Shown one piece after another: positions 3,461 to 63,733 of a stretch of 64,000 nucleotides of DNA. Source of the stretch: Branchiostoma floridae. Lineage: Eukaryota; Chordata; Leptocardii; Amphioxiformes; Branchiostomatidae. The first letter of the stretch is position 1, and each line of letters opens with the position of its first letter. The DNA is taken from contig NW_023365955.1 of NCBI RefSeq assembly GCF_000003815.2, positions 41,902-105,901 of the forward strand. Direction: 5' to 3'. The notes beneath the pieces were generated by a model. The model was given only the letters and a program-made list of their open reading frames with translations. It searched no databases and was not told the origin of the DNA. Made by a program: the position numbers and the translations under genes.

Positions 3461-3913
3461 GGGCATCACGGGTTAAGTAAGGCTCATTTAAAAACCAGAA
3501 GATTTTATTTCTGAAGTGGGGAGATTTATTTTAATAAAAACGTCTTAAAATCGACTGAGCATACAACAAGTTGCGACAGGGATAATGCATATGATATCGC
3601 TGCGGTTTGTTTTGAAATGTATGTTTACAAAATGTAATTTTAACTGGTGTTGATATGATTTATGAAAGTTCCCTCCTACTGTACATAAATCGTACAGCTC
3701 ATGTTACGAAATGATGTTCTAACTGATGCCACATGTACGAGTCCGAGATGAGAAGCAGACGTGCAGTTGATTGACAGCTTTGACAGATGGTGTTATGTTT
3801 ACTGTGTGTCAGAAGGTCCATCTGTCTTTGTAAACAGCTTCTGTATTTGTTTTGGATGACATAATGGGTTATAAGGGGCACCATGATTGATGCATGAAAA
3901 ATGGTCTATTCTT

Positions 3914-4369
3914 CTCCAAGCAGATGTTAGGGGTGCGCAATTTCAAAGATTTTTGACAATCCTGGCCTCTACGTGGGACCGCGTGGCGTAACTGATCACA
4001 ACTACAGGGAGTTTGGCCTAGAGGCCAGAGGTCCTGGGATCAAATCCTATCATACTACCTACTACATGCTACCGACCTTGTGCTCTTCAGAAGACACTAA
4101 CACGGCTTTCCTCACTCCACCCCGGGTGTAAAAATGTGTACCTTTTGGTTTAGGAGGTAAAATGCGGTAGAAGTAGAGAGATGGGCTGCACCTCCCAATG
4201 TCGTGCCACACAGTGGATGATATCTATAATAACCCACTGCCCAAGACTAAAAAAGTCTATACCACCTTTACCTACCACACGTATTGTAGGTGTCTGTAGA
4301 GGGAGTTAATGCAGAAAGACTTGCAAGCCAGGAAACTTTACAGTCGCCCACCCAACATCTGCTCGGAGA
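3914..4369. mobile_element. MITE with CTCCAAGCAGA termini carrying a tRNA-derived SINE
   Basis: The left end CTCCAAGCAGATGTTAGG and the right end CCCAACATCTGCTCGGAG are inverted copies. Inside, from about 3976, the segment GGGACCGCGTGGCGTAAC followed by GGTCCTGGGATCAAATCC resembles the A and B boxes of a tRNA-derived SINE and matches the better copy at 43197. The same MITE termini recur at 27338, 27961, 31052 and 34331. Confidence 0.6.
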
Positions 4370-5620
4370 TTATATCTTCAGACAGTGAGTAGACTACGTC
4401 TGACAATGAGGCGTCTAAGTCTTTGAACCTTTGCTTTGTTGTGTCTTGCATAGCTTCTTTGTTTATTATCTTTACGTTTAGCGGTTAGAATATGCGGAAT
4501 GGCCTTGAGGACCCTTGAGGGTTTCGGGTCGCCTTAGCTTGTATCTGGATGGTTGGGGGGTTCAGACCTCGGCGGGGTCATACCAAATACTTAAGTTCAA
4601 ACATTAAAACATGTACAAACTGCTTTCTATGCATAGCACTTATGAGAAAAGGTTCGAGACTGAGACTGTGAGAGTAAAACACAATCCAGTGGACTAGCCC
4701 CCAACTGTACGCCCATGGGCTATAGTTTTTCAACGGAGATGTGCACTACCCCTGCACATCGAAAGGTGTGGAGAGGTTTTGGATGAACTAGTCTGTGTGA
4801 AACAAACTCTGCTGTCCGGGGTTGTAACTGGCCCCTCCCCACAGGAGGTCGGTGGATGTTGGGCGGGCTACTATAATCGAGATTAAGACGATCATGCTAT
4901 GAATGAACTAACTCTGAGGTTATCTAGTCAGAATTGTCCATGGCTGTTACCAGGCGCAGAGCCCATTGTATGAAATATCTTATTATAGTTAAATAGATGA
5001 ATAAATAATAAATAGTTATAAATAATCAAGGCCGTGAAAACACAAAAATATCATCAGACGCAGATGTAACCAGACTGTTGTCTTGTTGTCATCTCAAATG
5101 TCCAACAACAATCTTCTAAAAGTAGATATGTTGGCACATAAGCGTTAACATGATATGGATCATAACAAACGTCTGTTTATGTGTATGTTTATCAGGGCAT
5201 TCATAGCGGACCAAAGAGACTTGCGTAAGAGCTGCGGCTATAGACGTGTTGGACGCATGCGCATCCCGTCTTTGTCTTTTTCAGTCACCTTGTTTTCCGA
5301 GGATTGGACAGAAGCGCCTAATTACGTATGAAAGAAGTATAGACAAATTCTCTTCTTGCTGGGATGACAGTGGCCTGAAAACCCAAGAATCAGTTTTTGA
5401 CGAGTATTGGAGAGGAAATAGAAATAAGGATGAATACCAATGTACCTGGTTTCCAGTTACTGTCTCTACATTTTCCGACAAGAGTATGAGGTGACCCGGT
5501 GTGCTAATAACCCCCTCACATTAGGCGAAAATCGATCGGACGACGAGTCTGCGAGCTCTAAATTACGAGGAGGCATGGCCCTGCTGCCGACGAAGAAATG
5601 GCAGAGTTCCCCCTTCCCGG
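4370..5620. other. Intergenic, no gene supported
   Basis: Only short frames are present, with no recognisable domain and no consistent splice structure. The part next to the gap is upstream of repeat-protein copy 1 and may include its promoter. Confidence 0.4.
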
Positions 5621-6857: not shown

Positions 6858-9696
6858 ACACAGAGAAGACAGAGAAGAAGAGCGAGAAGAAGACAGAAGA
6901 TGTCCCCCGCCCGCGGGAACCCAGGACGATCCTGCTGCCCAAACTGTCGCTTCGTGACTTCCGAAACGATGAGTATTTGTACGGCGAGGAGGGAGAATAT
7001 GAGACAATTGTCTTGGAGGAGTGGGTCGACAAGTATGACGGACCCTCATCAGGTAAGTTATAAGTACATATACTTGTAGGAAAGTATAGACTCAAAGGTA
7101 TAGCTCTAGACTTGGTAATGTTATACAGGTGAAGATACTGTGTATATTTGTAATCCATGCCTTTTCTTTTTGTGCGAAGAAGAAAACATATATACTTATA
7201 GCAAAGCTTGACTCAAAGATAAATCTCTAGACTTGGTAATGTTATACATGTGAAGATAATGTGTGTAATTCGTAATCCATGTCTTTTCTTGTTTATTTTA
7301 CGAGAAAGAGGAAATATACCTTGCCTGTAGTAAAGCTAGATCCAAAGATGTAGCTCTAGACTTGGTAATGTTATACATGTGTATAAACTGTACGTGGTTT
7401 GCAATCCGTGCCTTTTCTTGAAAAGTTGTGCGTTCTAGAACAATGAAAGAAAGAAAATCACCTATCTATGATTATGCACGTTGCTTTAATGATGATTACA
7501 AAAATAATAAACAAACAGAAATCTTGCTGGCCACATTTTGAAACGTTACACCGCGACGTAACTCTTGGCGTTTTCTGAAAGTTAGGTTACTTTATTAGTC
7601 GTTCGAAATTAGCTTTCCTTTTTCCCTCATTGCCAATGTTTTGCCTAAGAATGCCCAACCTGTAACGTTAAAGAAAGTATTCTGCGCAAAGTCTGACCAA
7701 GCTAAACTGATGTGTTTCAGCCTACTCCCGTCGTCCCTTTCCGACGGAAAGCCACAGCTGGCCCACGGTAGCCCAGCCCTACCGCCACGCGGCCCCTCAG
7801 CCCCGCTCCCGCAAGCCTGACCGCCGTCCTTCCGGCAAGTTCGGCCCTAGTGCCATCGGAAGCACCAGCTCCATCTTCGGGGATGGAGGCCTCTTCTCCG
7901 CCATCCGGGGTATGGGTGACTTCGACAGAGAGAAACCTGCAGCCGCTGCCATCGTGCACCGCGCAGAGTCGGCAGAGTTTCTGCGCCGTGTGCGCGCTGC
8001 GAAAATCAAAGTTGAAGTAGACAACATCTCACGCCATTCCAAGGAGAACGAAGACGAGATTCTGAAGCGCGCTGTTAAGGTCCAGGAAGATGGCGCCAAC
8101 TCACTCAATTCCGAGGAGACAGATGAAGTATACTGGGATTCTCCAGGGTTTCAGGGCAAGTTTCTCATCAAGCGTGCTGAAGATAAAATTCGCGCCGACT
8201 CACTCCATTCTGAGAAGGGATCAATATACGTATACGTCAACGGTCCCTGGTTGCCTCTGTGGAAGGTGGAATACAACGAATTCTACAATCCCAACCCGCC
8301 TGCGTGGCTAGCTGAAGACGTTGAAGATGGAGACCCGTTCTTTGACGCGCTGGACGTGCCGATACAAGATGTCCATTCTGAGAGCGGATCAATTTACGTC
8401 AACGGTCCCTGGTTGCCTCTGTGGAGGGTGGACTACGACGAATTCTACAACCCCAACCCGCCTGCGTGGTTAGCTGAAGACACGGGAGATGAAGAGCCGT
8501 TCTTTGACGCACTGGACGTGCCGGTACAACTTGTCCCTCAGTACGCAGTCAAGGGACAGCAGCTCGGTCCTGTCCAGGAGTTGGAGCGGCCTCATCAGTT
8601 GCTGATGGCCCTCATCATGTTCGTTATGATGGAGTACTTCGTCTCCTTCCAGATCCTGATGTCCAGCGTGACAGAATCGCTTGTAGACGCTATGACGAGC
8701 GTGTTCGCAGTTATCCGGATCTACTACGATAAGATCAAGCATCTGATCCTGCCCTTCATCCCGTCCGTTGTCAAGGAGTTCATCATCTCAGTCTCCGGGC
8801 GCACCTGGATGTGGATGACCAGAGTGGCTGAGTCAGTAGGAGGCGCTATGAACAGGGCATTGGCACTTCTCCAGAGCCACTCCGACAAGTTTCAGCTCGT
8901 GGCCAATAAAATCAAACAGCTGCTGCAGCCCCTCGTTCCGTACGTCATGATGTTCAAGGACTCCGTGGTGTCCATGGTGGGATCCGCCCGGATGATGATG
9001 GTCAGTGCTGCAGAGTCGGTAGGAGGCGCTGTGAACAGGGTATTGTCAAGTCTCCAGTATCAGTATGACAGGTTTCAGGTCGCGGCCAATAATATCAAAC
9101 ATCTGATTCTGTTGTTCATCCCGCCCGTTATCCAGGAGTATATGGTCTCTTTCTACGGCTCCGTCCGGATCCTGATTTTCAATATGATAGAATTTCTACG
9201 GAGCGCTATGAACAGGGCTTCCCCGTTTGTGATCAAGTGCAAGGAGTGTGTCCTCTCTATATTTCGTTGTATCTGGATTCTGATGATTAGTATGATAGAA
9301 CTGCTCGCAGGCGCTATGCACAGGGCGTTGTTAGTGTTGGACTACGCCATCACCGATCTCATGTACCCTAGGCTGAAACAGCTGGTGCTGGCCTTAATCG
9401 CGTATGTTATCAGGTTGAAGGAGTGCATCCTCTCCATATACGGTTATGTCCGGATCCTGATTATCAAACTTGTAGAGACTTTAGTGGTCGCTGTGAAAAG
9501 GGTGTTACAAGTGTTGCACTACGTCGGCTACGATCTGATGTACACTAGCGTAAAACAGCTGGTGCTGGCCTTCATCGCGTCTGTTATCAGGTTAAAGGAC
9601 AGGATCATCTCCTGTATTCTCTTTATCCTCATCATCATTTATCTGACGAGGCGCGCGTATCAACTTAGAAACCAACATAGAAACCGGATGCACTGA
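6858..9696 (+). CDS. Unrecognised repeat membrane protein, copy 1 (exon 1 lost in gap)
   Basis: Exons are 6858-7052 (195 bases, phase 1 in and out) and 7721-9696; exon 1 should be inside the preceding gap. With a copy-2-sized exon 1 the protein would be 755 residues. Order: a Lys/Glu-rich stretch, an acidic segment ending KYDGPSS, a Pro/Arg-rich basic stretch, two W-rich repeats containing VNGPWLPLW and NPNPPAWLAED, then about six hydrophobic repeats of roughly 60 residues. The repeats begin K-x-L-[IV]-L-x-F-I and contain G-A-[MV]-x-R. A C-terminal hydrophobic segment followed by basic residues ends the protein. Compared with copy 2, five extra bases sit just before exon 2. They fall in the intron, upstream of the acceptor TTTAAG|AC, so the gene is not frameshifted. 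I do not recognise the family. Confidence 0.75.
7067..7425. repeat. Three ~125-bp tandem repeats in copy 1 intron 2
   Basis: CTCTAGACTTGGTAATGTTA recurs three times, at about 7102, 7226 and 7352, each followed by a related stretch ending in a CCATG/CCGTG-CCTTTTCTT motif. Copy 2 has the same structure in diverged form (about 22930-23220), and part of it is seen inverted at copy 3. Confidence 0.7.
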
Positions 9697-9799: not shown

Positions 9800-12010
9800 G
9801 TTCTTTCTACAATCGTCGAAGTTCTCTACGGTAAATATCATTACCAAGATGTACCGATACGAAAAAGTGAAAAAAAAAACATTGGCTGACATTTGAAGCC
9901 AAAGATATAAAAACCATACATAGATTTAAAAAAAAAACATGGATATCTTTTAAGGGATCCCATGAGAAAAAAGGACGACTAAGGCAACGAATTATTGATT
10001 TACACAGCCTATGCAAGACTGTAGATTGTACTATTTTTCGGCAATTTTCGTTGCTGTAGCAGGCGTGTTACAAAGATGTGTATCATTTACTCGGCGGGAA
10101 CCGACTTGTAATTGATAAAAAAGAAAGACAACAAATATTGTTATGATAATGATATATGTTATTATCATGAAATGCTCTAGCTGGTCGTGAGTATATATCA
10201 TATGTTCAGTCGAATTTCAGTGTCCTAGCGTCGTTGTAGATACATCGACTTTACACAAGTAGGGACAATGTTAACATGGGAATGTTGTCTCGTGACACTG
10301 ATAATTTTGTTTAAGTAAGCTCAGTTGTATTGCAAAATTAAGTACTACATGGACTGTATATAAATGGGAAAGTTTTATTGGACATTGTATGAACACTTAA
10401 GCACTTGAATTTCATAAAAAGTACTATATCTAAGTACCCATTGGTCTTTGTGTAGTCATTTAATCATAACATGTACTGACCAGGATCGGACATGGTGCAC
10501 TTCTATTGTTCAAATGTGTTAACAATTTGATCATTTATTTGATCACACCTTTGAGACCACAGTGCAGTTATTTAAATTCTAGTGATTAGATGTCCTGGTT
10601 TCATCCTTATCTCCAATGAGAAAACTAACAGATGAATTAATGTGACAATAAATTCCACAACATCTGTTTGAAGACTGGGAGATATACTAAAGCACAAAGT
10701 ACTGATCTGAACGCTTAGGACATCTTCGTTTATGTTGACAATATACAATTACTGCAATAGTAGCATCAAAACGCGCCACCCTGTTCCAAAGTTGTGTGTA
10801 ATGCTACTACTGTCCATATACGGACGAAGACAAAGGCATGAAAGAATGAAAAAATAACTCCTCAAGGCATCCTCAAGCAATCAGCACCCACGGCTTATTT
10901 TGGTTGTAAAGTTTTTAAAAAAACACCTCATGCTAAATGTCTGCCATTAAAGCGTTAACCCATGCTTTATGAAAGCATATGTTTATTTTTGTTTGTCTCA
11001 GAACAAAAATATACAACGCAACGCCACATTGTTTTTTTTTTTTTTACAATGGGGCGCAAGTAACCAACTGGGGTCACGTGATGTCATGAAATCACGCTTG
11101 ACGCGGTCGTGGGATATATCAATTGCACATTTGCTCTTTGATATTTGCTCTTCTCCCCTTAACTGAGCTAACCTGTACTGGAGGATTTGCGATCCAAAGG
11201 TCCAAAAATTGCTTTTAACCTCCGCGCTGTCCTTGATAGGATTGCAATAGCTGTCCGCATGCTTCGGTATAGGGAGACCATTGAGATGTGCTCCCCTACG
11301 TATTCATTAAGTTCCCTTATATCCCTGTCACATTATCCACGATCTTCGGGCGTATCGATGGAAGATCGGCCATATTTAAGATCGACAGAGGGTTGCGCGT
11401 ATTTTTTTACCTGAAAACTGTCCCTGTCACATATAAGCCATACTTTGTAGCTTGTACAATTGTTGTGCAATAAAGTTGTTATTATAAGCGAGGCTCGGGC
11501 GATTGCCGCAGAATCGTCGTACGATCGATTTTCGCCAAATGTGACGGGGGTATGGGCGCGGTCACATGTAGGTCGTTCGATCATCGTACGATTTTGATAA
11601 TATGATTTTTAAGCAGACAGTGACAGAGCTAACCACACACAAGGATCCAAAAGAGCGTTTTGTACAGCAAGACAGCTGAACATTGTGGGACACATGCGTG
11701 GCTGTCCTAAAAATTGCCCCATGTTAGCGGTCGTAGGATTATCGCACCAACTATGTGACGGCGCCTCAACCACTAGACGGCGATCACTGGGTGACCATAC
11801 AGCAACCAAAATGAAATTTGTATGACCCTTGATTTCGTAACTGGATTATGATGCAAGATGCAAGTATGGTTTGAAAGACAACAAAGTAAACAAGATGTAC
11901 AAAGAACTGTGAAATTCGTTGAGAGTTCTGTTAGATGGCAAGCACTACCACCGGCCACAAAAGGTAAGATCTCTGAGTTTGTCCTAGATGTCATGCCCCA
12001 CGCGGGGTTT
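9800..12010. other. 3' region of copy 1 and intergenic spacer
   Basis: AT-rich and without coding signal. A candidate poly(A) signal AATAAA is at 10647-10652. Around 11500-11600 a palindromic segment contains ATCGATTTTCGCCAAATGTG, similar to sequence at 5520, suggesting a degraded DNA transposon end. Confidence 0.45.
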
Positions 12011-12024
12011 TGTCTAGTAATATG

Positions 12025-12263
12025 TAGATGCAGATGTAGATGTAGATGCAGATGTAGATGCAGATGTAGATGTAGATGCAGATCTACGTGCAGATGTAGA
12101 TGTAGATGCAGATCTACGTGCAGATGTAGATGGAGATGGAGATGTAGATGTAGATATAAATGTAGATGCAGATGTAGATGTAGATGCAGATCTACGTGCA
12201 GATGTAGATGGAGATGGAGATGTAGATGTAGATATAAATGTAGATGCAGATGTAGATGTAGAT
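12025..12263. repeat. Hexamer-based satellite (GATGTA/GATGCA)n
   Basis: About 240 bases of GATGTAGATGCA units, with higher-order blocks that include a GATCTACGTGCA variant repeated three times. Open frames on both strands (Arg-Cys or Ser-Thr repeats) are artefacts. It lies about 100 bases past the stop codon of the CARD-GIMAP-Hint gene. Confidence 0.95.
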
Positions 12264-12361
12264 GGCTTAGATAGTTGGTGACTCAGTGATCGGAACGCGG
12301 TCGCAGTCTCTAGAGAAAATGTAGTCTGTACCGGGCTTACATAGGAGTACAAGTTTTTGTA

Positions 12362-12946
12362 TCAACGTGACCTCCACCATGCCAGCATGTCCTCCAGCTT
12401 GCCCATCCACCACGGCACGCCGCCTGTCTCCTCCGGGACGCAAAGCAGCCTGAACAGGCGGGGGCAGGTGCGGTGCAGCCAGCCGAGCGGCAGGAGGAGC
12501 CCGTGCGCTAACGCCAGCGGAAGCTTGTCGGTATAGCAGGAGACGTACACGCCATCCACGATCAGGGAGCCGCTGTAGGTGTGGGGACAGTACTGACCAC
12601 TTTTGAGCGCGTAGTGAACGTCGACTACCTTATCAGGTGTCAAGCAACCTGTGGACTCTTCCACAGAGAACACCTTGTCTCCTTCTTTTATTTCTCTGGC
12701 AGGAACAGTGACCCTCTCTCCATCCCTGCTGATGGTGATGAAATGGCTCTGCGACAAGGAGACCGTCTTGCCCTTCTCTGTGGTGACATCAATGTATGTT
12801 GACAGGACGTCCTCCAGTGCATGGCTGAAGATGAACACTGGCTCAAATGTGTCTGCGGACACCCTGACATCCTCACCAACAGAAACTGAGGAAAGAGGAA
12901 CTTCGTCAGCAGAAGCTGTTACCAAAACAGAGGACGCGGGAAAACA
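12362..12946 (-). other. Hint/Hog autoprocessing domain with sterol-recognition-like tail
   Basis: The domain starts at D-C-F-P-A-S-S, with the Cys codon at 12946-12944. It resembles the G-C-F start of the Hedgehog C-terminal domain. SVGEDVRVSAD matches the Hedgehog L-x-P-G-D-x-V-L-A block, S-Q-S-H matches its T-x-x-H block, and SGSLIVDGVYVSCY matches its G-T-I-L-I-N-x-V-x-A-S-C-Y end. The remaining 56 residues (LALAHGLL ... GVPWWMGKLEDMLAWW) resemble the sterol-recognition region of Hedgehog. Differences: Ser replaces the usual Thr, and Asp rather than Gly precedes the catalytic Cys. Confidence 0.82.
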
Positions 12947-15900
12947 GTCCCTTTCAGTGTCTTTGTTCAACTCATCTTTCAACTTCTGCATAATGACCTT
13001 TTTCTGATGTTCATCGCTCTCTTCAAACAATTTAAACACTTCGTCGATCTTCTGATGTATCTCAATAGTGACGGGCTCCGGCTTGATAGGTTTTCCTTCT
13101 GGCTGTGGCGGCTGTGGTTGGTTGCTGACATCCCCGGATCCAGGTACCGCCACCGCAGCTCCCACCTCGTCCTTGCTTGCCATGCGTGTTGCGACATTCC
13201 TCGGGCTCTGATTGGAGGGTTCTCGAGTAGGGGATGGAGAAGATGGGGCTTGAGACTGAACATTCGTGGCCGCGGGCTGGTGCGTCTTCCTCCAGCGAGA
13301 CTGTGACACTGTCCACTGGCCTGTAGGGTCGTCGTCAACACGCCCTGGAACAGTCGTACTTTTCCCAGTGACGTCTTGACTGGAGATGTTTGCATGTCTT
13401 CTCTTCTCCTGTTGTTTTCCTCTTCGATCGTTCTTTTTCTTCTTTGATATCTTCTGGGTCCAATTTGGTACAAACGGTGTTGACTTTTTGTCAGCCCGAG
13501 GTTTCTGGGGATTTGCCTTCGCCTTGGGCGTCTTTGGTACTGCGCCGGCTGTCTGGTTGGTGCTTGCTGAAGTTACCTTGGGCTTCTTGCCTTGCCTTGA
13601 CGCACGTTTTGTTTTGTCATGATCATAGATCATTGAGGATACCATCTTAGTGTACTTATTATTGTATGGCTTATTGTCGGTATCAGTCATGACACTCCGT
13701 ATCATGTCAAGGAGCCTGTGCCTCTGTCTGTCCTTTGTATCCTGATCGTTTGTGCGGTTGTCAAAAATCAAATATCTATTCTTTACCTGCCTCAAAAGCC
13801 CTTTGAACCACTTTGGATTTTTGTCGTCGTTAATGAGGTCTTTCAATGCTTCTTCCTCAAAATCATCACCGTGCGTATACAATATGATTACGTGCTTGAG
13901 GATGTCAGTTTGAAACTTCTGAATCAGACTATTATATGCCATTTTCTCCTCCTCTGTTAATCTACAGTCCGGTCTGAAAACCAGTATTACGGCATGTATT
14001 CCACCATGCGCTAGCACATGAACTTTACTTATCTCTTCGACAATTGTCTCATAGGGCATACTGGTATCAGCAAATCCTGGGGTGTCAATTACATTTAGAA
14101 TGTATCCATCAATACATGCCTTAGCATTATCACAGGTGGTAGTTTCTGATCCCCACCTTTTAGACACGTTGAATACATTATTCCCTACAATACTGTTACC
14201 AGTGGCGCTTTTGCCGTTCCCTGTTCTTCCCAGCAACACTATGTTGTACGGAGACTGAAACAAAAGACGGAAATATTATGAACAAAAAAAGTGGATTCCA
14301 TATGATACTATACTAGAATATCAATCACAGTTATGATATCAATACACTACAACAACTGATAATATTGACTGTCAATGCCTAGGTTACAAACATTGTCCAT
14401 TGGGTAGATATCAATGAGGGACTTTCTTTGTGACGAGTAGACTGCGGAGACAACGTGAGATAACCCCCGGAGATCATACTCCTGGATACACTGAGTTCAA
14501 GACGTGGTTATTGTTACCGATTACATGCAAACCAGCAGATTTGACTTTAAATTTCTGCTGCTACATGTAGGTTAGTCCTGCAGAATGCGCTGGGAAGTTT
14601 CGGATTTACCGTAAAGCGTCGTCGGCCATTCTGAATTTACCGTTAAGTGTCGTCGGTCATTCTGAATTACTCCCCTTGAATATAGACAAAAAAAATTTAC
14701 CTGCCATTTTGTTTGAGCTTCACACGGAGATGCACCTGTGTAAAGATAAATGTTCATGTATTGTATAAATATTTCCAAGACGAGGATCCCTTCAAGATCC
14801 CACAATTTTGACTTACAGGATATTCTGTGTGAGACTTACCTGAAGTGTGAGTAGTTGTAACTGGCACCAGTAGATCGGCCAAATGGTCTTGCTTCACATC
14901 CTCCTGTCGTAGTGCGGAGCAGAGCGACTGTACTGCGGCTGCGCACTCAAGACCTCCCTTTCTGACAATCACGTCAATTATCTTCTCGTTGAGAACCTTT
15001 TATGAATAGGAAATCATTTAAATTCTGTCAAAAGACATGCGGTGAAAATGCAACATCTATCATATGCTCAGATGATACACTCCATTTTCTGTATCGTTAT
15101 AAACATCATTTGAGATAATTACATTACCTCTGTAGGTTCAGACATAAAACGTTAACAGGCAAAAGGGTGTACCTCACAGTGACAGCTAATATATAAAAGG
15201 ACATAATAAGACAGGTCCTGAATAAAAAGAATCTCCTTTCAGTTTGCTATATAGGCACAACTAGGAAAATCGGTATAACATTGTTGTTTCGCAGGGCCCA
15301 ATCGACGCTTTGATACAAACAACACAAATTTGAATTCAAACAATATCTACTGAAGCTTGCAGCAAAATCGCAGCTAGATACACAGCTAGCTTTGCAGTTT
15401 TGACAGCTCAAGATATGTTGAAAAATAGACTAATCACCTCTGTTGTTCGTGCCTCTTCTTTCATTCCTCTTTGCTTCTCAATAGAGATAATGCCATCTTG
15501 TACCAAGTGCTTGAGGATACGTCTCCCATCCATCTGTCTTACCAAGGCGCTGTAGTTCTTATGTAGCGGACACTGGCTTGATGTTTGTGTTGGTGGAGTA
15601 GCAGCTGCAGACGCTGACATACCTATCACTGCCAAATTTAAAACACAGTCCTGTACGCATCAACAGAAAATCAGCATCTCAATCGAACGACACCAAATGA
15701 AAACAACCACACAGCTTCACAATGGATACCTGAGACGCACACCATTTTAAAACGTGGGGCAGTGACAGCTGTGGATAGCTGACAACACGACTCCATATCT
15801 GCTTGGAGATAAGTAATTGCCAAACCCCATCGCCTATAGGCCAGCTGTTCTACAATACCAGGGAAATAGGGGTGATTTCTCAAATTATTACATCGATAGC

Positions 15901-18900
15901 GAAAACAGCTACCGCGAAAAAAAAAAGATCCTAAGGATCAAATACGTTCTAACCATAAAATGCATATGACTATCAACCGCGCAAAATGTTAACAGTATGC
16001 TATGTGAAACCAACCTCAATACTGGAAACGCAAAGCCCGAACGAGATGACATATTCCGACGAGGACAACATCTGCTTGACGATATTGAATTACCACAAGG
16101 CTTAATGCGCGATCCTAACGAAGACATAAGGGGGCACACACCAGTTTATTTGGGGTTTCAATTGGAGGCGGCACACCCTCAAGTCTAGCGACCAGCTCTA
16201 CCAGGGAATTATTCTGAACCAAAATAACTGTATATCTGGTGAAAGCATATTCCTTTAGCTACAAGACAAACTAAGTTTCGATCCTTCAACTTCTCTGATT
16301 TTAAAAAATTAGAGGGAAAAAACATTATTTTCATGTAAAAAATAATGCAAAAAATTGGGCATTTTGGCATTGAAAGAAAAACATGAAGATGATTTTTCCG
16401 GCAAACACGACTGATACTGTCAGAAAGAGGAAAACCTAACGAGTAATCCAGCTAATTATAAAGAAACTTCTAGTACTACAGTTTTTTTAATCATCCACGG
16501 CGCGCGGCATTACAACTAGGCTTAACACAGCGCTTCAGAGGTTAATCTAGGTCACGAGCCTAATCACATTCAGGCGTAGGAATATCCCGGAAGTAAGACG
16601 CGGACCAAAACACAATTTGCACCAAAAACACACCATTTCCTACGCTTTTCAGCCATGTAACCGTTTAATGTCATTTCGCAGGAAATAATGAGAAATGTCA
16701 ACTCAAACATGGACCCTCGGAAGCCTTTCGTCACTTTTTTCTCGCGCACTAGCTCGGACCCCTGTCGCGGAAGAACTGGGGTGTGCACCGTTAATATATG
16801 CAAATTATGATTATTATTGTCCATAACTTTAAAACGTTATACTCTATAGTCATGCCAAGTTTGAGTTGTCTGCGACTTTTCTTTCTCGAGTAACAGGTGG
16901 TTGAAAGTTGCGGTGTCGGAAGGCTGATTTTGCGCCTTCAGGCCAGTATACCATTCAATGCGCATAATAGCAATTACGTCACAATAAGCTTGTCCTATGG
17001 AAGAGGTTTTAGGCCATTAATACGTGCTAAATGAAGAGGTATGGTCGTGAAAAGGAAAGGCAAGGGGCCGCTCTTGCGATGGAGCACACTTTCCCTCTAT
17101 TTCTAACTGGAATGAACAGTAGAAACCACCTAGAACGTAGTTGAGTTCGTGACGTCACAATGCCGGCCACTAGCCTATGTTTGAAAGTAAGGACGCTGCA
17201 GTTTTAAGTTCCGCACTTCAATGAGAAGCGCTCAAAATGTTATTTTTTGGTCATATCTGGTAGAGGATAGACCTAGCTTTCCCGTCCAAGCGTTTCCGTA
17301 GGCCGGGCTTCTTTCATTTCGTAGAAAAATGAAGTCATATGTTGTATCTTTGGTTAAGATGGAGGCCTATTCTGCATATCCTGCAGGTATGAACTTAAAA
17401 ACGGGCATCTGCTAAGATAAGGCTGTGCAGTTTGGTGTCGGTCTAGGTGTAATAAACAAGCCTTGGGATGTATCTTCGGATTGGTGCAACTTACTTGTGT
17501 TAATGTCGAGAACTAGCGCCACGCCGAACTTAACACTTGATTTGCCAGGAAAGTGCGAAAATGACGTCAGCAGGGGCTTTTTTCATTGAAAAACGCTTGC
17601 CGCTTGATGTAGAAGCAACTGTGAACCGTGTAAATGCGATTTACAGGTGCCCCAGAGGTTGTGTAGCAGAAACAACAATGTTTCGGGAATTGTTATTTAA
17701 TCTATGCTTAGCACACACACTTCAAAGGCTCTGCGACCGTGTTTGAGGGGGGTGGGGGTGGTGAGGGGGGCAAATCCACCAATTATATGACAGTGTAGAA
17801 TCATATCAAAACCTGAGAAATCCGGCTTTTTTTAACTAGAATTTGATCGAGGCTATACACTTTCATGGGAAAAATGCAATTTGTTGGCTATTATCGCTAA
17901 TACTTTTTTCAGGATGGGCGCTTTTAAGGGGGCACACACCAGTTTATTTGGGGTTTCAATTGGAGGCGGCATACCCTAAAGTCTAGCGACCAGCTCTACC
18001 AGGGAATTATCCTGAACCAAAATAACTGTATATCTGGTGAAAGCATATTCCTTTAGCTACAAGACAAACTAAGTTTCGATCCTTCAACTTCTCTGATTTT
18101 AAAAAATTAGAGGGAAAAAACATTATTTTCATGTAAAAAATAATGCAAAAAATTGGGCATTTTGGCATTGAAAGAAAAACATGAAGATGATTTTTCCGGC
18201 AAACACGACTGATACTGTCAGAAAGAGGAAAACCTAACGAGTAATCCAGCTAATTATAAAGAAACTTCTAGTACTACAGTTTTTTTAATCATCCACGGCG
18301 CGCGGCATTACAACTAGGCTTAACACAGCGCTTCAGAGGTTAATCTAGGTCACGAGCCTAATCACATTCAGGCGTAGGAATATCCCGGAAGTAAGACGCG
18401 GACCAAAACACAATTTGCACCAAAAACACACCATTTCCTACGCTTTTCAGCCATGTAACCGTTTAATGTCATTTCGCAGGAAATAATGAGAAATGTCAAC
18501 TCAAACATGGACCCTCGGAAGCCTTTCGTCACTTTTTTCTCGCGCACTAGCTCGGAACTGGGGTGTGCACCGATAAACCACAATACCGGACGGCGTAGGG
18601 GTGAAAACTGAAATTATTACATCCGTAATAAAAACTGCTATGATAATCACGAAAAAAAAGAACGTGCATCAATTCGCAACGGAGTACAGACGACATGCCA
18701 AACCACATACAATTGCGGCAAAAGGAACACTCAACGCATGAAGACTCTGTTGCTGGAGGTTACCCTCCAGTCACAGAGTAATAACTCACACATATTAGCC
18801 CATGGCTACTTCCCTCCGCCAATGAGAAGGCAAGCCTCCATTTTCGGCGGAAATATCCACATGGTGTAAGACCATTTTTAACCTCCTTGGTAAAACTAAA

Positions 18901-20153
18901 AAGTGTCGGACCAAGGAGGTTAAAAATCTCTTTTTTTAACCTCCTTGGTCGGACTATTTCATGCAAATGAAGAAAAGGCATGGCAATATCAGGCAGGACT
19001 GTACACGTGGTCATATCAGAGTGAAAAGTGTGAGTGCTATACGTATGTGACCTATTTTGACCAATCATCTTAAGCTTCTATCTGGGAGTATGCCATGTGA
19101 TAAGTGACCAATCCTACTCTTTCTAATTGTCCAGAGGAATGTGATCAGACTTCCGGTCTGCACAGGTAGAACGCTTGGGAATGTTTTGACAAGATTAATG
19201 GCCTCGTGGCTATTGATAACTGACACTGTCTATCACAGCATGTCAAGCAATAAGCGAAGATTGTGGACTTTCAGGACAAAAAATCAGTTATGTCTGTGAC
19301 ATAGTATGAACAGGTACTTACCAGCACACCCTGGCCTTGAATCCCGTTCAGAAGCCTGCAAACTTTCACTTGCGCCTTTCTCCATCTCGATTTCTTGAGG
19401 CATTCCTGTGAAGACACTTTGATGGCCTAGGAGTGCAATAAACAGGTCGCTCGTGCATAAATGCATTGAGAATTCTGATACATTTCATCCTCTTCCACCA
19501 CCGGTGTTTCCACACACTAATCCGCATATTCTGTATATGTGTGTATACCGTTGTATTGTATAAAAAGTTTTACCTGCAAGTCCCTCACATAGAACTGCGA
19601 TGACGTCCACCTCATTGTAGATTTTGGCATCCAGTGACAAGTTTCTCTGACTTTTGATCAATTCGAATCTATTGTGTGCAGCTTTTCCGCATGAGAATAC
19701 TACATCTACATTGTCATAGAAACTATAATGTTCCTCATTTCTTGGTTCTTCATGTGGTTTGACGGTGTTGATGCCGACAAGTTTAGAATCGCGATATTTC
19801 TCATGTTTTAGGATAGACCCAACTTCCAGGGTCGTAGCAGAATAGCACACAATGCATTTAATATCTTCCGCAGCCGGAAGATCAGGGAAATGCCTGTCAT
19901 GGTATTCACCCAGCCAGTTGATCTCTGGCACTTTCACCCTCCTGGTAGGTCGTGGTTGCAGTACGATAACACCCTTTGTCTTTGCGTGCTTCAAATCATC
20001 GACATCGTCTTGATCTTTCAAGGCCAGGGTTGTGGTGTAGGTTTGAACTTTTTTAATCTGAAGATGTTTGGCTATATTTGTGTTGATTTCGTTGAGTTTC
20101 TGTCGGCCTTTTTCGTTCTTCTTCCAGTAGTCGTTCAGAAGAAGAACAGCCAT
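12362..20153 (-). CDS. Fusion protein: glycosyltransferase-like domain, CARD, AIG1/GIMAP GTPase, Hedgehog-type Hint domain
   Basis: Six coding exons: 20153-19574, 19405-19322, 15628-15438, 14996-14840, 14735-14701 and 14254-12362. All have AG/GT borders and agreeing phases (1,1,0,1,0), giving 980 codons (979 aa). The start at 20153 has a strong context (ACCATGG). Residues 1-193 resemble a GT4-type Rossmann domain (AVLLLNDYW, DVVFSCG). Residues 242-330 form a CARD (YSALVRQMDGRRILKHLV ... LCSALRQ ... DHLADLL). Residues 350-560 are an AIG1 GTPase with GRTGNGKSATGNSI, DTPG, a GIMAP box near 430-442, THGD and IFDNR. A Lys/Pro-rich linker follows, then a Hint domain from Cys786 with His853 and SCY. 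The 35-base exon 5 is required for frame. Domain calls for CARD, GTPase and Hint are firm; the N-terminal domain type and its membership in the same transcript are inferred from phase and spacing. Confidence 0.8.
15730..15796 (-). CDS. Possible alternative first exon of the CARD-GIMAP-Hint gene
   Basis: A minus-strand ATG at 15796 opens 22 codons ending in a donor (GTCTCAG|GTATCC) in phase 1. It could splice directly to the CARD exon at 15628 and keep frame, giving a product without the glycosyltransferase-like domain. There is no other support. Confidence 0.25.
16130..18572. mobile_element. Composite element with ~650-bp direct terminal repeats
   Basis: Near-identical direct repeats at 16130-16790 and 17928-18572 flank about 1.14 kb. 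The right copy lacks 15 bases near its end. Each copy itself starts GGGGGCACACACCAGTT and ends AACTGGGGTGTGCACCG, a roughly inverted pair. The outer flanks are ATAA on both sides and the inner flanks TTAA on both sides. That pattern fits one insertion event, with long terminal repeats or as a composite transposon, better than two independent insertions. No transposase or polymerase frame is seen. It sits in the long intron between exons 2 and 3 of the fusion gene. Confidence 0.7.
18885..18952. repeat. Short inverted repeats TTTAACCTCCTTGGT
   Basis: TTTTTAACCTCCTTGGT occurs twice in direct orientation and once inverted (ACCAAGGAGGTTAAAAA), so the middle arm can pair with either outer arm. It is intronic to the fusion gene. 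Confidence 0.7.
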
Positions 20154-20790
20154 GGTTCTAAGATTACCAGCTGAAGGTGAAACGCAATGTGAGAAATGTT
20201 GTAAAACAACATATCCACTTAAAATGAATAGAATCATTTCATTATTTCCTGTCCGTATTTCTGGTCATCACTGCAGCATGATTTACGGCATTTTTGTTAC
20301 AGTGCAACATAGACGGAATCACATAAGTTAGCCATGACATGATCCGGCACATTTTCTAACTAGAGTTCCTCGCCAAATAATTGAAATAAAAAAGTCCCTT
20401 ATTGCAATATTTTACATGAATGCATTTTATCCTCTTGCCGAATCACATATGATTCAAATATCGTACTTCATGAAGTTCAACCAATATACATTTATGTTGT
20501 TTCGGCTCAAGAATCAAGTTTAGTTAATCTCTCGAAATTATGGCACAGAACTATAAGAAAGTTAGAGTGATATCAATCTAGTTTTAGTTCACTGACTGAC
20601 TGACTGACTGACTGACTTATCAATCCTTTCCTTCCTGCCTATTGTGCCTGTATGGTTACGTTAGAAGAAAATAACAGACTCACCAAATTTGTGTCAATCT
20701 ACTCCCCTGTAATATGAAGTTTTAGATTTCTCCAAAATCAGACCTGCGCCATCGAAACCACCGGAAAATCCCGACCGCCGGTGAACTGTC
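20154..20790 (-). other. 5' region of the fusion gene with a candidate non-coding exon
   Basis: The first coding exon has an acceptor (ACCTTCAG|CTGG) at 20170, seventeen bases before its ATG, so an untranslated exon lies upstream. A minus-strand donor (AAATTTG|GTGAGTCTG) ending at 20684 is the best candidate. A (CTGA)n microsatellite sits at about 20590-20617. Confidence 0.4.
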
Positions 20791-21008
20791 TCTAACAGTG
20801 TGGTTGAACTTTTACCTTCGACATGGGTGCGGCAGTTGAGGTCGACACACTTGTTGAGTCACGGAAATATCGTGTGCATCTGGGTAAACAACTATTACGT
20901 ATGCGTAGTGATCGAGGGACCATCTTTAGATTGTCTCGACAAATTCAACGTGATAAATGATGGGGGCGATACTCGTTACCCTCCACCAGGTTATTCTACG
21001 GTAGCATA

Positions 21009-21110
21009 AGATGGTATTAAAAGCCGCCAGAAGAGTGAAGCCGGCCTGGGAGTGTGTTTGGCTCTGGTAGTATACGCACGTCCAAGGCCGGCTTCACTCC
21101 TCTGGCAGCC
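21009..21110. mobile_element. Short foldback element
   Basis: AGAGTGAAGCCGGCCTGG and CCAAGGCCGGCTTCACTCCT form inverted arms around a short loop. A related core is nested in the MITE at 31052-31198. Confidence 0.6.
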
Positions 21111-21827
21111 AGTCTGCAGGAAAGCTAAGAATTATTCCTCTAAGCCCTATGAACTCCGTCTGAAAATTATTGCCACCCTAGCCAGCGTATAGTGAGTCTG
21201 GTGGAGACTAAATACAACGTACTTGCAACGACACCCAAAGTTCATTGCGTCATGAAGGCACAACGAAAGGTCAAGTGTGACGGGTGGATCACAACAATGG
21301 TGTCTGTACACATTTTTCAAGTACCATATGCAAACTACGGGACCCGGTCAGTGACGCTAGCCTAGGGTCACATTTCCAAACTGGCGTGTGATCGGGCTGT
21401 ATAAGCCAAAAGACAACAAAGTACACTAGTCATTAAATAAATGAATATAAATTACTATTCATGAGTATATCTCTCTTTGATATGAACTTTTCTTTCTCGT
21501 TCCTGCAAATAGAAAGTACGGTCCGGTGCCTGTTTGACAACCCTCGCATAACAATTACAGCAAAAGCAAAAGCTGGTGAGTGGATGGTTTGAGTCATTTC
21601 AAACTTTAAAACCATTTTGAACTTAAACAAGCACAGTCCGGTGCCCGTTTGACAACCCTCGCATAACAATTAGATTGTAGTTTGCTCAAGTACGCTATAC
21701 CACGTAAAAGTACTACATCGTAGTTCGGTGAAATCAACGCCTTGGCGTAACGTAATTTATTTTTTATTGGAGGAGTGACACAATAAACGCCCAACTATGA
21801 CGATCGGCTTGATCCTAAAAACGCCGT

Positions 21828-21924
21828 TATAAAGGTAAGCCATTCTACAACTACGACGACGGGTAAGCGCATGCGCGGTTATGAAAAAGGAATGCGTCTG
21901 TTCTTTAAAGTGACTATGACGTCA
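21828..21924 (+). promoter_or_regulatory. Candidate promoter elements of copy 2
   Basis: TATAAA at 21828-21833 and a perfect cAMP-response palindrome TGACGTCA at 21917-21924 lie about 285 and 190 bases before the copy 2 start codon. They are seen in sequence only; the transcription start is unknown. Confidence 0.35.
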
Positions 21925-22112
21925 CAAATCTTCAGAGCAATCTTGTCGTGTAGTTTTATGTACACGATTTTCGCCTTGCTGCGTGAAAAAGTGCTCTAAG
22001 TTCTGGTTTATACCAGACATTGCGAGATTTAATTGGTTGACGCATTTGTCGACCAAGTCAAGAAAGTGATCGTGGTTTTTGAGGATCAATTTGCAAGTAT
22101 TAAAGTTGCAAA

Positions 22113-25100
22113 ATGCCGTTGAGAGGCCCGGGCTTCAACCAGCCGGTAACGACGGCAGTCTTGTCCGTCGCCGCCGTGGCATATATGCTCTGGATCTTAT
22201 TTGCAGAAGGTGAGTTGGCCAAGATAGCTGCAGTACTTCACATGCATCTAATATAATTACATGTCTGTTTTAGTTTTTGTTTAATCCGCATCACTTTTGT
22301 AAGGTTTGGTAGAGTATCAAGACGATTTCAGTCTTCACGATACAAACCTTTTTCTGATCGCGCGAACGCAAAGCAAACTAAAGCTAAGGTCACATTTCCA
22401 ACCCCGGGGCCCGGGCGGGCAGCTTTCTGGAACCAAGAGTATGATATAAGAAACAACAGAAAACTAAAAACTAAAAAGTCATTGATATAATCTGTGTATA
22501 ATCCTTGAAAAACATTTTAATTTTTTCGTTCCCGCAATCATCCCGGCCGGGCCCCGGTTTGGAAATGTGACCGTACACTAACGATATGTTCGAATCTGCA
22601 GTTTGGTTTTCTTCCTTACGTTACAACAAGAGAAACTGTCAGACGATATCATGACATTTCTCCACATGTTAGACACAGAGAAGACAGAGAAGAAGAGCGA
22701 GAAGAAGACAGAAGACGTCCCCCGCCCGCGGGAACCCAGGACGATCCTGCTGCCCAAACTGTCGCTTCGTGACTTCCGAAACGATGAGTATTTGTACGGC
22801 GAGGAGGGAGAATATGAGACAATTGTCTTGGAGGAGTGGGTCGACAAGTATGACGGACCCTCATCGGGTAAGTTACAAGTAAATATATACCTGTAGTAAA
22901 GTATATGTATATATATATATATACACTCAAAGTATAGCTCTAGATATATAGACTTGGTAATGCTTTTTTGTGGGAAGACGAAAACATATACTTGTAGCAA
23001 AGTTTGACTCAAAGATATATCTCTAGACTTGGTAACGTTATTATGTAAAGATACCGTGTGTAGTTTGTAAACCATGCCTTTTCATTTCCTTTTTTGTCAG
23101 AAGAAGAAATGTATACCTGTACTAAAGTTAGACTCAAGTGTATAGCTATAGGCTTATGTAATGTTATACATGTGTATATACTGGGCGTGTTTTGTAATCT
23201 GTGCATTTTCTTGAAAAGTTGTGCGTTCTAGAACAACAAAAGAAAGAAATGTCCCTATCTGTATAATGCGTGTTGATTTATAATGATTAGAAAAGTAATC
23301 TACAAATCGAAATCTTACTTTTCACATCCAGTTTTGTAACGTTACATCGCGATCTCACTCTTGATGTTTTAAAAAAGTGAAATGGGGTTACTTTAGTCGT
23401 TCGAAATTGGTTTTCCTTTGTTTCCTGGATATAAATTTTCGTTCAGAACGCCTAACTTGTAACGTTGAAGAAAGTATTCTGCGCAAGGTCTTGACCAAGC
23501 TAAACTGATGTGTTTCAGCCTACTCCCGTCGTCCCTTCCCGACGGAAAGCCACAGCTGGCCCACGGTAGCCCCGCCCTACCGTCCCGCGGTCCCACAGCC
23601 CCGCTCCCGCAAGCCTGACCGCCGTCCTCCCGGCAAGTGCGGCCCTAGCGCCATCGGAAGCAACTGCTCCATCTTCGGGGATGGAGACCTCTTCTCCGCC
23701 ATCCGGGGTATGGGTGACTTCGACAGAGAGAAACCCGCAGCCGCTACCATCGTGCACCGCGGAGAGTCGGCAGAGTTTCTGCGCCTTGTGCGCGCTGCGA
23801 AAATCAAAGTTGAAGTAGGCAACATCTCACGCCATTCCAAGGAGAACGAAGACGAGATTCTGAAGCGCGCTGTTAAGGTCCAGGAAGATGGCGCCAACTC
23901 ACTCAATTCCGAGGAGACAGATGAAGTATACTGGGATTCTCCAGGGTTTCAGGAAAAGTTTCTCATCAAGCGTGCTGAAGATAAAATTGGCACCGACTCA
24001 CGCCACTTTGAGGAGGGATCAATATACGTATACGTCAACGGTCCCTGGTTGCCTCTGTGGAGGGTGGAATACAACGAGTTCTACAACCCCAACCCGCCTG
24101 CGTGGTTAGCTGAAGACGTTGAAGATGGAGACCCGTTCTTTGACGCACTGGACGTGCCGATGCAACTTGTCCATTCTGAGAAGGGATCAATATACGTAAA
24201 CGGTCCGTGGTTGCCTCTGTGGAGGGTGGACTACGACGAATTCTACAACCCCAACCCGCCTGCGTGGTTAGCTGAAGACGCAGAAGATGAAGAACCGTTC
24301 TTTGACGCCAACCCGCCTGCGTGGCTAGCTGAAGACACGGGAGATGAAGAGCCGTTCTTTGACGCGCTGGACGTGCCGGTACAATTTGTCCCTCAGTACG
24401 CAGTCAAGGGACGGCAGCTCGGTCCTGTCCAGGAGTTGGAGCGGCCTCATCAACTGCTGATGGCCCTCATCATGTTCGTTATGACGGAGTACTTCGTCTC
24501 CTTCCAGATCCTGATGTCGAGCGTGACAGAATCGCTTGTAGACGCTATGAAGAGCGCGTTTGCTGTTATCCGGATCTACTACGAGAAGATCAAGCAGCTG
24601 ATCCTGCCCTTCATCCCGTCCGTTGTCAAGAATTTCATCATCTCAGTCTCCGGGCGCACCTGGAAGATGCTGACCAGTGTGGCAGAGATGCTTGGAGGCG
24701 CTATGAACATGGCATTGTCAGTTGTCCAGAGCCACTCCGACAAGTTTCAGCTTGTGGTCAATAGAACCAAACAGCTGCTGCAGCCCCTTGTCCCGTACGT
24801 CATGATGTTAAAGGACTCTATGGTGTCCATGGTGGGATCCGCCCGGATGATGATGGCGAGTCTAGGAGGCGCTATGAACAGGGCGTTGTTACTACTCAGC
24901 TACGACAGGTTTCAGGCCGTGGTACTACTCAGCTACGACAGGTTTCAGGTCGTGGTCAGTAAGATAAAACAGCTGCTCAATGCCCTCATCCCACCCGTTA
25001 TCCAGGAATGTATGGTCTCTTTCTACGGCTCCATCCGGATCCGGATCACCAGTGTTGCAGAATTGTTAGCAGGCGCTATGAACAGGGCTTCCCCGTTTGT

Positions 25101-25566
25101 GATCAAGTTCAAGGAGTGTATCCTTTCTATATTTGGTTGTATCTGGATTCTGATGATTAGTATGATAGAACTGCTCGCAGGCGCTATGCACAGGACGATG
25201 TTAGTGTTGCACTACGCCATCACCGATCTCATGTACCCTAGGCTGAAACAGCTGGTGCTGGCCTTCATCGCCTCTGTTATCAAGTTCAAGGAGTGTATCC
25301 TCTCCATATACGGTTATGCCCGGATCCTGATTATCAAACTTGTAGAGACTTTATGGGGCGCTGTGAAAAGGCTGTTACGAGTGTTGCACTACGTCGGCTA
25401 CGATCTGATGTACACTAGCGTAAAACGGCTGGTGCTGGCCTTCATCGCGTCTGTTATCAGGTTAAAGGACAGGATCATCTCCTGTATTCTCTTTATCCTC
25501 ATCATCATTTATCTGACGAGGCGCGCGTATCAACATAGAAACCAACTTAGACACCGGATGAACTGA
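22113..25566 (+). CDS. Unrecognised repeat membrane protein, copy 2 (complete)
   Basis: Exons are 22113-22209, 22673-22867 and 23519-25566, with GT/AG borders and phase 1 at both introns. Together they give 780 codons (779 aa). Exon 1 encodes MPLRGPGFNQPV followed by a hydrophobic anchor (TTAVLSVAAVAYMLWILFA, residues about 12-31). Residues 33-97 are Lys/Glu-rich, then acidic. About 264-384 hold three W/P-rich acidic repeats (VNGPWLPLW, NPPAWLAED, PFFDALDVP). About 409-760 hold five to six hydrophobic repeats of roughly 60 residues with L-I-L-P-F-I-P-x-V-V and G-A-M-N-R cores. The end is a membrane-type segment (ISCILFILIIIYL) and basic residues. The likely topology is membrane-bound with hairpin-like or amphipathic helices. 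I recognise no known family. It lies head to head with the CARD-GIMAP-Hint gene, about 2 kb between start codons. Confidence 0.82.
22387..22577. mobile_element. Foldback MITE in copy 2 intron 1
   Basis: Inverted ends GGTCACATTTCCAACCCCGG and CCCCGGTTTGGAAATGTGAC. It is the same insertion as in copy 1 at 6548-6752. Confidence 0.6.
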
Positions 25567-63366: not shown

Positions 63367-63733
63367 CTGAAACACATCAGTTTAGCTTGGTCAGACTTTG
63401 TGCAGAATACTTTCTTTAACGTTACAGGTTGGGCATTCTTAGGCAAAACATTGGCAATGAGGGAAAAAGGAAAGCTAATTTCGAACGACTAATAAAGTAA
63501 CCTAACTTTCAGAAAACGCCAAGAGTTACGTCGCGGTGTAACGTTTCAAAATGTGGCCAGCAAGATTTCTGTTTGTTTATTATTTTTGTAATCATCATTA
63601 AAGCAACGTGCATAATCATAGATAGGTGATTTTCTTTCTTTCATTGTTCTAGAACGCACAACTTTTCAAGAAAAGGCACGGATTGCAAACCACGTACAGT
63701 TTATACACATGTATAACATTACCAAGTCTAGAG

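What the first reader, a model, noticed from the sequence alone, without database searches (positions are those of the whole stretch)
12362..20153. A sensor-CARD-GIMAP GTPase fused to a Hedgehog-type Hint domain
Six minus-strand exons join with agreeing phases into 980 open codons: a GT4-like Rossmann domain, a CARD, an AIG1/GIMAP GTPase, a basic linker and a Hint domain. CARD and GIMAP are immune signalling modules; Hint domains cut themselves off and can transfer a lipid. I know of no described protein with this order, but could not search. Model (inference): the Hint domain releases, and perhaps lipid-anchors, a CARD-GTPase, so that it is membrane-bound or activated only after processing.
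Basis: partly seen in the sequence, partly recalled or inferred. Interest (0 to 1): 0.95.

Follow-up and report, generated by a model that had tools for sequence, protein, structure and literature searches.

The report
Lancelet immune GTPase with Hedgehog-type tail
A lancelet gene joins a worn-down sugar-transferase half, a cell-death signalling domain, an immune GTPase and a Hedgehog-type self-cutting tail; a second gene copy shows that the fusion is real, and the tail probably cuts itself off and may attach a lipid anchor.

Summary
Six minus-strand exons join with agreeing phases into 979 residues plus a stop, with a Hint domain from Cys786. The strongest new evidence is a second copy at C18:3.616-3.624 Mb: the same four domains in the same order, 60-67% identical, with the same intron phases at the borders readable in both and a conserved 35-nt mini-exon. 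dN/dS is 0.14-0.31 in the four domains.

CARD+AIG1+HINT in lancelets is already in print (PMC12373286, 2025), and AIG1+Hint is older (PMC3723955, PMC2362128). What I did not find described is the N-terminal domain: a GT4 glycosyltransferase N-lobe without its glycine loop and C-lobe.

The Hint domain keeps Cys786, S850-x-x-H853 and SCY, and by two of three alignments has His827 where Hedgehog has its general-base Asp. That swap leaves Hedgehog active and widens its sterol range (PMC9163320). In a GTPase tree the three Hint-bearing proteins group with two that end in CaaX-like boxes.

Best mechanism (inferred): self-cleavage at Asp785-Cys786, probably with lipid anchoring of a cytosolic CARD-GTPase. 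No transcript, cleavage or structure-model evidence was obtained.

The parts
19574..20153 (-). Exon 1: start Met and GT4-like N-lobe (Rossmann), residues 1-193
19322..19405 (-). Exon 2: 84 nt, phase-neutral spacer; no counterpart recognised in the C18 paralogue, so the least certain exon
15438..15628 (-). Exon 3: first half of CARD (alternative acceptor at 15622)
14840..14996 (-). Exon 4: second half of CARD
14701..14735 (-). Exon 5: 35-nt mini-exon, same length and phase in the C18 paralogue
13634..14245 (-). AIG1/GIMAP GTPase domain (residues 353-556) in exon 6 (14254-12362)
13064..13615 (-). Basic linker, residues 563-746, net charge +23
12947..13063 (-). Stretch directly before the Hint Cys, ending in Asp785 (position -1); residues 747-785, probably helical (inferred by eye, no call)
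12527..12946 (-). Hint domain from Cys786 (codon starts at 12946) to Asp925; His827, S850-x-x-H853, S921-C922-Y923
12365..12526 (-). Adduct-recognition-like C-terminal region, residues 926-979, Trp-rich, 45 of 54 residues identical in the paralogue
12362..12364 (-). Stop codon

Best explanation
It is one lancelet gene for a cytosolic immune GTPase precursor: GT4-like N-lobe, CARD, GIMAP GTPase, basic linker, Hedgehog-type Hint/ARR (Hog) domain. Shown from sequence: the order, the exon structure, its conservation in a paralogue, the retained Hint Cys and His, and absence of the GT4 glycine loop and C-lobe. Inferred mechanism: after translation Cys786 attacks the Asp785 carbonyl (N-to-S acyl shift). 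The thioester is then resolved by a lipid alcohol held by the C-terminal Trp-rich region with His827 as general base, or by water. This frees the GT4-CARD-GTPase, with or without a C-terminal lipid. The polybasic linker plus the lipid would hold it on a membrane, where GTP-driven GIMAP assembly clusters the CARDs to recruit caspase-type partners. The GT4 lobe is read as a non-catalytic binding module.
For: Gene: phases and a 35-nt mini-exon conserved in the C18 paralogue, whose CARD exon has no in-frame ATG before the CARD; dN/dS 0.23 (GT4), 0.14 (CARD), 0.19 (AIG1), 0.31 (Hint). Hint: best PDB matches are Hedgehog, E 9.7e-11 with the window sequence and 1.7e-35 with the four-sequence profile; Cys, S-x-x-H and SCY align. 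His at the Asp46/D303 column in the 3 AIG1-Hint proteins read (for the window, 90 for all three); D303H Hedgehog stays active and accepts more sterols (PMC9163320, passages read). Adduct-like region 45 of 54 identical between paralogues against 92 of 140 for the Hint core. Three Hint-GTPases and two GTPases ending CPLF/CTLF form one side of a branch with support 97/92. GTPase: the closest solved structures are GIMAP5/7/4/2/1.
Against: No transcript, protein or cleavage data. Residue -1 is Asp (Gly in Hedgehog and in the C19 gene), which may favour hydrolysis over lipid transfer (recalled from intein practice, from no call). Hedgehog works in the secretory path; no hydrophobic start was seen here (19-residue windows starting in the first 24 residues: highest mean -0.51). 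The tail lacks the HWY motif of Hedgehog (by eye). In alignment A2 Ser826, not His827, falls under the Hedgehog Asp; searches put His827 there. The three Hint-bearing GTPases are not clearly a single group: two changes in the best tree, one origin in 42% of bootstrap trees, and 35 of 500 label shuffles needed as few changes. CaaX-like ends were seen in only 2 of 13 non-Hint frames. No structure model could be made.
Confidence: 0.45

Rival explanations
1. Self-cleaving but not lipid-transferring: the Hint domain hydrolyses at Asp785-Cys786 and simply releases the CARD-GTPase, constitutively or on a redox or thiol cue.
For: Cys and S-x-x-H kept; Asp at -1 in window and C18; no HWY motif in the tail. 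Hedgehog D46A forms are cleaved faster by DTT (PMC13060885, passages read).
Against: His, not Ala, at the general-base site; the adduct-like tail is better conserved than the Hint core (45 of 54 against 92 of 140), which pure hydrolysis would not need; two relatives carry CaaX-like ends.
Confidence: 0.35
2. The Hint domain no longer cleaves and serves as a fixed C-terminal regulatory or membrane-binding domain.
For: Thr of TxxH is Ser and -1 is Asp; the C19 relative has STY in place of SCY.
Against: Catalytic Cys and His kept in the 3 AIG1-Hint proteins read; Hint dN/dS 0.31.
Confidence: 0.15
3. Two genes: a short GT4-like gene (exon 1, with or without exon 2) and a separate CARD-AIG1-Hint gene starting at the ATG in exon 3 (near 15620).
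For: 3.7-kb repeat-bearing intron between exons 2 and 3; an in-frame ATG close to the start of exon 3; the exon-1 frames of window and C18 run into a stop about 29 and 11 codons after the donor, so an unspliced short protein is possible; published lancelet architectures name CARD as the N-terminal domain (PMC12373286).
Against: The C18 CARD exon has no in-frame ATG before the CARD, and its splice phase fits the GT4 exon; the same order and strand occur at two loci; exon 1 is 580 nt with a phase-1 GT donor at both.
Confidence: 0.07

Closest known systems
Lancelet CARD+AIG1+HINT GIMAP proteins (PMC12373286, PLoS Genet 2025)
   Same: CARD, AIG1 and C-terminal HINT in the same order in Branchiostoma; probably the same gene set (my inference, no accession compared)
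   Different: Section 10, read in full, describes no GT4-like N-terminal domain, no active-site analysis and no mechanism for the HINT part; figures and supplements not seen
Coral AIG1 + C-terminal Hint proteins (PMC3723955) and a snail AIG gene with Hint (PMC7053062)
   Same: AIG1 GTPase joined to Hint
   Different: No CARD or GT4 part stated together with the Hint in the passages read
Fungal GmGIN1 (PMC2362128, citing Requena 2002)
   Same: AIG1-like GTPase followed by a bona fide Hog domain, no signal peptide
   Different: No CARD or GT4 part stated in the passages read
GT4 glycosyltransferases of conflict systems, Pfam PF20706 (PMC8195603)
   Same: Likely origin of the first domain; metazoan versions are fused to immune and death-type domains (GT4-TRADD-N in cephalochordates; passages read)
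   Different: Here only the N-lobe remains and the glycine loop is lost; joined to CARD-GIMAP-Hint
Hedgehog C-terminal domain (1AT0; D303H form 6TYY)
   Same: Hint core with Cys, (T/S)xxH and SCY, followed by a hydrophobic tail
   Different: His in place of Asp at the general-base site, Asp at -1, no HWY motif, no secretion signal seen, GTPase cargo

Membership tests
Hint/Hog (Hedgehog-type) | Sequence match above curated cut-off | tested here: met
   PF01079 82.1 bits, cut-off 29.7; Hedgehog chains top the PDB lists
Hint/Hog (Hedgehog-type) | Catalytic Cys1 at the junction | tested here: met
   Cys786; invariant column in 4 of 4 sequences. In one search the six Hints had been cut to start at this Cys, so their agreement there is by construction
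Hint/Hog (Hedgehog-type) | TxxH motif | tested here: met
   S850-Q-S-H853, Ser for Thr
Hint/Hog (Hedgehog-type) | General-base Asp46/D303 needed for cholesterol transfer | tested here: not met
   His827, Ser826; D303H keeps activity per PMC9163320
Hint/Hog (Hedgehog-type) | Self-cleavage and lipid adduct | not testable with these tools
   needs expression
Hedgehog ligand | N-terminal signalling domain and secretion signal | tested here: not met
   No signalling-domain family in the Pfam list at E<=1; no hydrophobic start
GIMAP/AIG1 GTPase | AIG1 domain, nearest to GIMAPs | tested here: met
   PF04548 E 1.5e-57; GIMAP5 best solved structure, E 3e-25, and 8 of 15 hits are GIMAPs, ahead of Toc34-type GTPases
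CARD | PF00619 above cut-off | tested here: met
   24.1 and 25.2 bits against 23.9 in two paralogues, marginal; 14 of 16 PDB leads are CARDs, at E 0.16-1.2, none significant
GT4-conflict glycosyltransferase (PF20706) | Profile match | tested here: inconclusive
   Window domain 0 families at E<=10; C18 counterpart 34.0 bits, cut-off 26; the profile also rings in 14 of 14 control genomes, so it does not single out the conflict branch
GT4-conflict glycosyltransferase (PF20706) | Glycine loop and nucleotide-sugar C-lobe (active enzyme) | tested here: not met
   GG in 27 of 28 paralogous loci printed (21 of the 28 aligned), absent in both four-domain genes; no C-lobe in either. That the loop is needed for activity is recalled

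The most novel reading that the evidence does not exclude
A Hog domain lipid-anchors an intracellular immune GTPase: the GT4-CARD-GIMAP part is esterified at Asp785 to a sterol-like lipid by a Hint domain with a natural His general base, and in this GTPase clade Hog and CaaX are interchangeable C-terminal lipid-anchor devices. This would be a natural use of Hedgehog chemistry outside secreted ligands.
Probability: 0.35. Interest if true: 0.88.

Novelty: new variant of a known kind. Interest (0 to 1): 0.55.

Why it matters
If the tail works, Hedgehog-type self-cleavage and lipid attachment would also serve inside cells, on an immune GTPase, and would tie a death-domain adaptor to a membrane by a covalent step that is written into the protein. 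A native His at the site where Hedgehog's Asp was changed to His in the laboratory would give a natural test of the widened lipid range.

Tried and rejected
Chance joining or wrong gene model: rejected by the C18 paralogue. Haplotype copy elsewhere: the DNA search with exon 6 lists, besides itself, only C18 at 72-75%. Whole-protein Pfam scan for CARD and GT4: no hit at E<=1, so segments were scanned apart. PDB profile search for the GT4 lobe: no match at E<=0.01 among 177635 sequences. Rfam on 10000-22000: 0 matches. tRNA scan of the window: 0. NCBIfam: for exon 6, nine GTPase models and one DNA polymerase model over the Hint part, all below their cut-offs; for exon 1, none. CARD or GT4 on the C19 AIG1-Hint gene: cannot tell, 6478 of 9400 fetched bases read N. 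The ninth Hint place (C146, one stop inside) was not read. The tree used 23 of the 30 matches plus the C19 Hint gene joined from its pieces (two of the other matches); five matches were left out (L056, L063, L064, L066, L067).

Print searches: 'Hint domain'+GIMAP (3 papers); amphioxus+'Hint domain'+hedgehog (5); amphioxus/glycosyl transferase/death-fold/CARD, three of four (3); amphioxus/domain combinations/CARD/glycosyltransferase (1); lancelet/glycosyltransferase/death domain/NACHT (0); amphioxus/AIG1/CARD (2); conflict systems/GT4/glycosyltransferase/Branchiostoma, three of four (2); GIMAP/Hint/autoprocessing (1); GmGIN1 (4); hedgehog/cholesterolysis/D46, two of three (209, 20 listed). Papers: PMC12373286 passages and section 10; PMC3723955, PMC7053062, PMC8195603, PMC3482391, PMC2362128, PMC9163320 and PMC13060885 passages only; other listed papers search listing only. 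Figures and supplements were not seen, so a four-domain drawing in one of them (for instance Fig 6 of PMC8195603 or of PMC12373286) is not excluded.
Full report
Observation. Pfam finds AIG1 at 353-556 (E 1.5e-57) and Hint at 784-947 (E 5.4e-23) in the whole protein. Scanned alone, the CARD segment reaches PF00619 with 24.1 bits against a cut-off of 23.9 and its paralogue 25.2; 14 of 16 PDB leads are CARDs (ICEBERG, CARD8, caspase-1, Apaf-1), none significant by itself (E 0.16-1.2). The first domain matches no Pfam family itself, but its 62%-identical counterpart on C18 matches PF20706 GT4-conflict (34.0 bits, cut-off 26). Besides itself and C18 the window domain hits 60 places of the same genome at E<=0.01, the best at 1.7e-12; 57 of the 60 lie in open frames of at least 394 residues. 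Because PF20706 rings over its cut-off in 14 of 14 control genomes, I take the match as 'GT4', and the 'conflict' branch as likely from the lancelet relatives (two scanned, 265.9 and 242.6 bits).

A second copy settles the gene model. On C18 the same four domains lie in the same order and strand: GT4-like lobe, two CARD exons, AIG1, Hint. Exon lengths are 580, 170, 139 and 35 nt, with phases 1, 0, 1, 0; the window has 580, (84), 191, 157 and 35 nt with phases 1, (1), 0, 1, 0, and the C18 splice borders that could be read are AG and GT. The CARD exon of C18 has no in-frame ATG before the CARD, so it needs an upstream exon. Amino-acid identity is 62, 60, 67 and 67% for GT4, CARD, AIG1 and Hint, and dN/dS by Nei-Gojobori is 0.23, 0.14, 0.19 and 0.31 (bootstrap ranges 0.15-0.34, 0.00-0.29, 0.10-0.28, 0.21-0.44). 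The CARD dS of 2.07 is near saturation, so that ratio is rough. A run of N covers most of the C18 linker, and AIG1 and Hint lie in different frames on its two sides, so their continuity is not directly read. Exon 2 has no counterpart that I could recognise there.

The GT4-like lobe. In the alignment of 23 sequences (the two four-domain genes and 21 of the 28 other loci held) the two four-domain genes differ together from the rest at the glycine loop. Of the 28 loci printed, 27 have GG there; L013 does not. The C-terminal lobe is absent. The simplest reading is a GT4 derivative without enzyme activity (inference). PMC8195603 (passages read) describes GT4 domains as predicted effectors of bacterial conflict systems that were taken into animal immunity, with GT4-TRADD-N in cephalochordates, and TRADD-N fusions to AIG GTPases.

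The Hint domain. The window sequence matches Hedgehog chains at E 9.7e-11 and the four-sequence profile, which includes the lancelet Hedgehog Hint, at 1.7e-35. Cys786, S850-x-x-H853 and S921-C922-Y923 align with Hedgehog's Cys, TxxH and SCY. The general-base Asp is His827 and in the six-sequence alignment, where the three AIG1-Hint proteins and one of two C4 Hints have His, and the lancelet Hedgehog and the other C4 Hint have Asp. The four-sequence alignment is shifted by one and puts Ser826 there. According to PMC9163320 (passages read), Hedgehog D303H (PDB 6TYY) keeps its structure and activity and accepts more sterols, while D303A loses cholesterol transfer. Residue -1 is Asp in both four-domain genes and Gly in the C19 gene. 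The tail after the Hint core is 45 of 54 identical between the paralogues against 92 of 140 for the core.

The GTPase family. In a tree of 24 AIG1 domains (23 of the 30 matches, and the C19 Hint gene joined from its pieces), the three Hint-bearing ones and two neighbours on C19 lie on one side of a branch with support 97/92. The two neighbours end in CPLF and CTLF, and their tails, otherwise divergent, align at C-x-L-F-stop. These were 2 of the 13 non-Hint frames read; one other has a hydrophobic stretch near its end (19-residue mean 3.12). A single origin of Hint is not shown by this tree: two changes in the best tree, one in 42% of bootstrap trees, and 35 of 500 label shuffles needed as few. 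That Hog and CaaX are exchangeable anchors is my inference; prenylation of CxLF ends is recalled and untested.

Known and new. PMC12373286 (section 10 read) reports N-terminal CARD and C-terminal HINT as the most recurrent architectures of lancelet AIG1 proteins, and CARD+AIG1+HINT as shared only with a few fungi. AIG1+Hint is known from corals (PMC3723955), a snail (PMC7053062) and a fungus (GmGIN1, in PMC2362128). I did not find the GT4-like lobe, the active-site reading or the CaaX relation in the passages I read. So I call it a new variant of a known kind.

Mechanism. The most likely course is self-cleavage at Asp785-Cys786, with a lipid alcohol or water resolving the thioester; I give 0.45 to release with probable lipid anchoring, 0.35 to release by hydrolysis alone, 0.15 to a dead Hint domain and 0.07 to two separate genes. 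These overlap slightly and are judgements. Structure prediction could not be run (15 busy answers).

Noticed in passing
window 7711-9696 (+), 23509-25566 (+), 61318-63376 (-): Three copies, the outer two 85-87% identical to the middle one, of a 660-685-residue single-frame protein (the third is broken by a run of N) without a credible Pfam match (two of the three scanned); the only other relative found in the genome is on C15 at 5.92 Mb, 60-75% identical.
   Followed up: partly
C19:15.240 and 15.242 Mb (L049, L046): Two GIMAP-like frames end in CTLF and CPLF, CaaX-like boxes, about 10 kb from an AIG1-Hint gene.
   Followed up: partly
G000, many contigs: 57 GT4-conflict matches over the cut-off in this genome (lower bound: 102 candidates, 57 scored), several in clusters, as on C3, C5, C14, C18, C19 and C191.
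   Followed up: partly
window 16127-16426 and 17925-18224: Two 99%-identical 300-nt direct repeats in the long intron between exons 2 and 3.
   Followed up: no
L074, intron between the two CARD exons (reverse-strand nt about 3733-4520): Reading frames that look like a Penelope-type element with a GIY-YIG part (recognised by eye, no search).
   Followed up: no
window Hint (12365-13063) against C18 Hint: Synonymous divergence is lower in Hint (dS 0.67) than in GT4 (1.06), AIG1 (1.12) and CARD (2.07), which could mean gene conversion.
   Followed up: no
C4:25.13 Mb (L003, L004, L007, L008): Two neighbouring intron-split Hint genes with no AIG1 match listed there; one has His and one Asp at the general-base column.
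   Followed up: partly
window 43517-44536 (-): 339-residue frame with weak TPR matches, all below cut-off.
   Followed up: no
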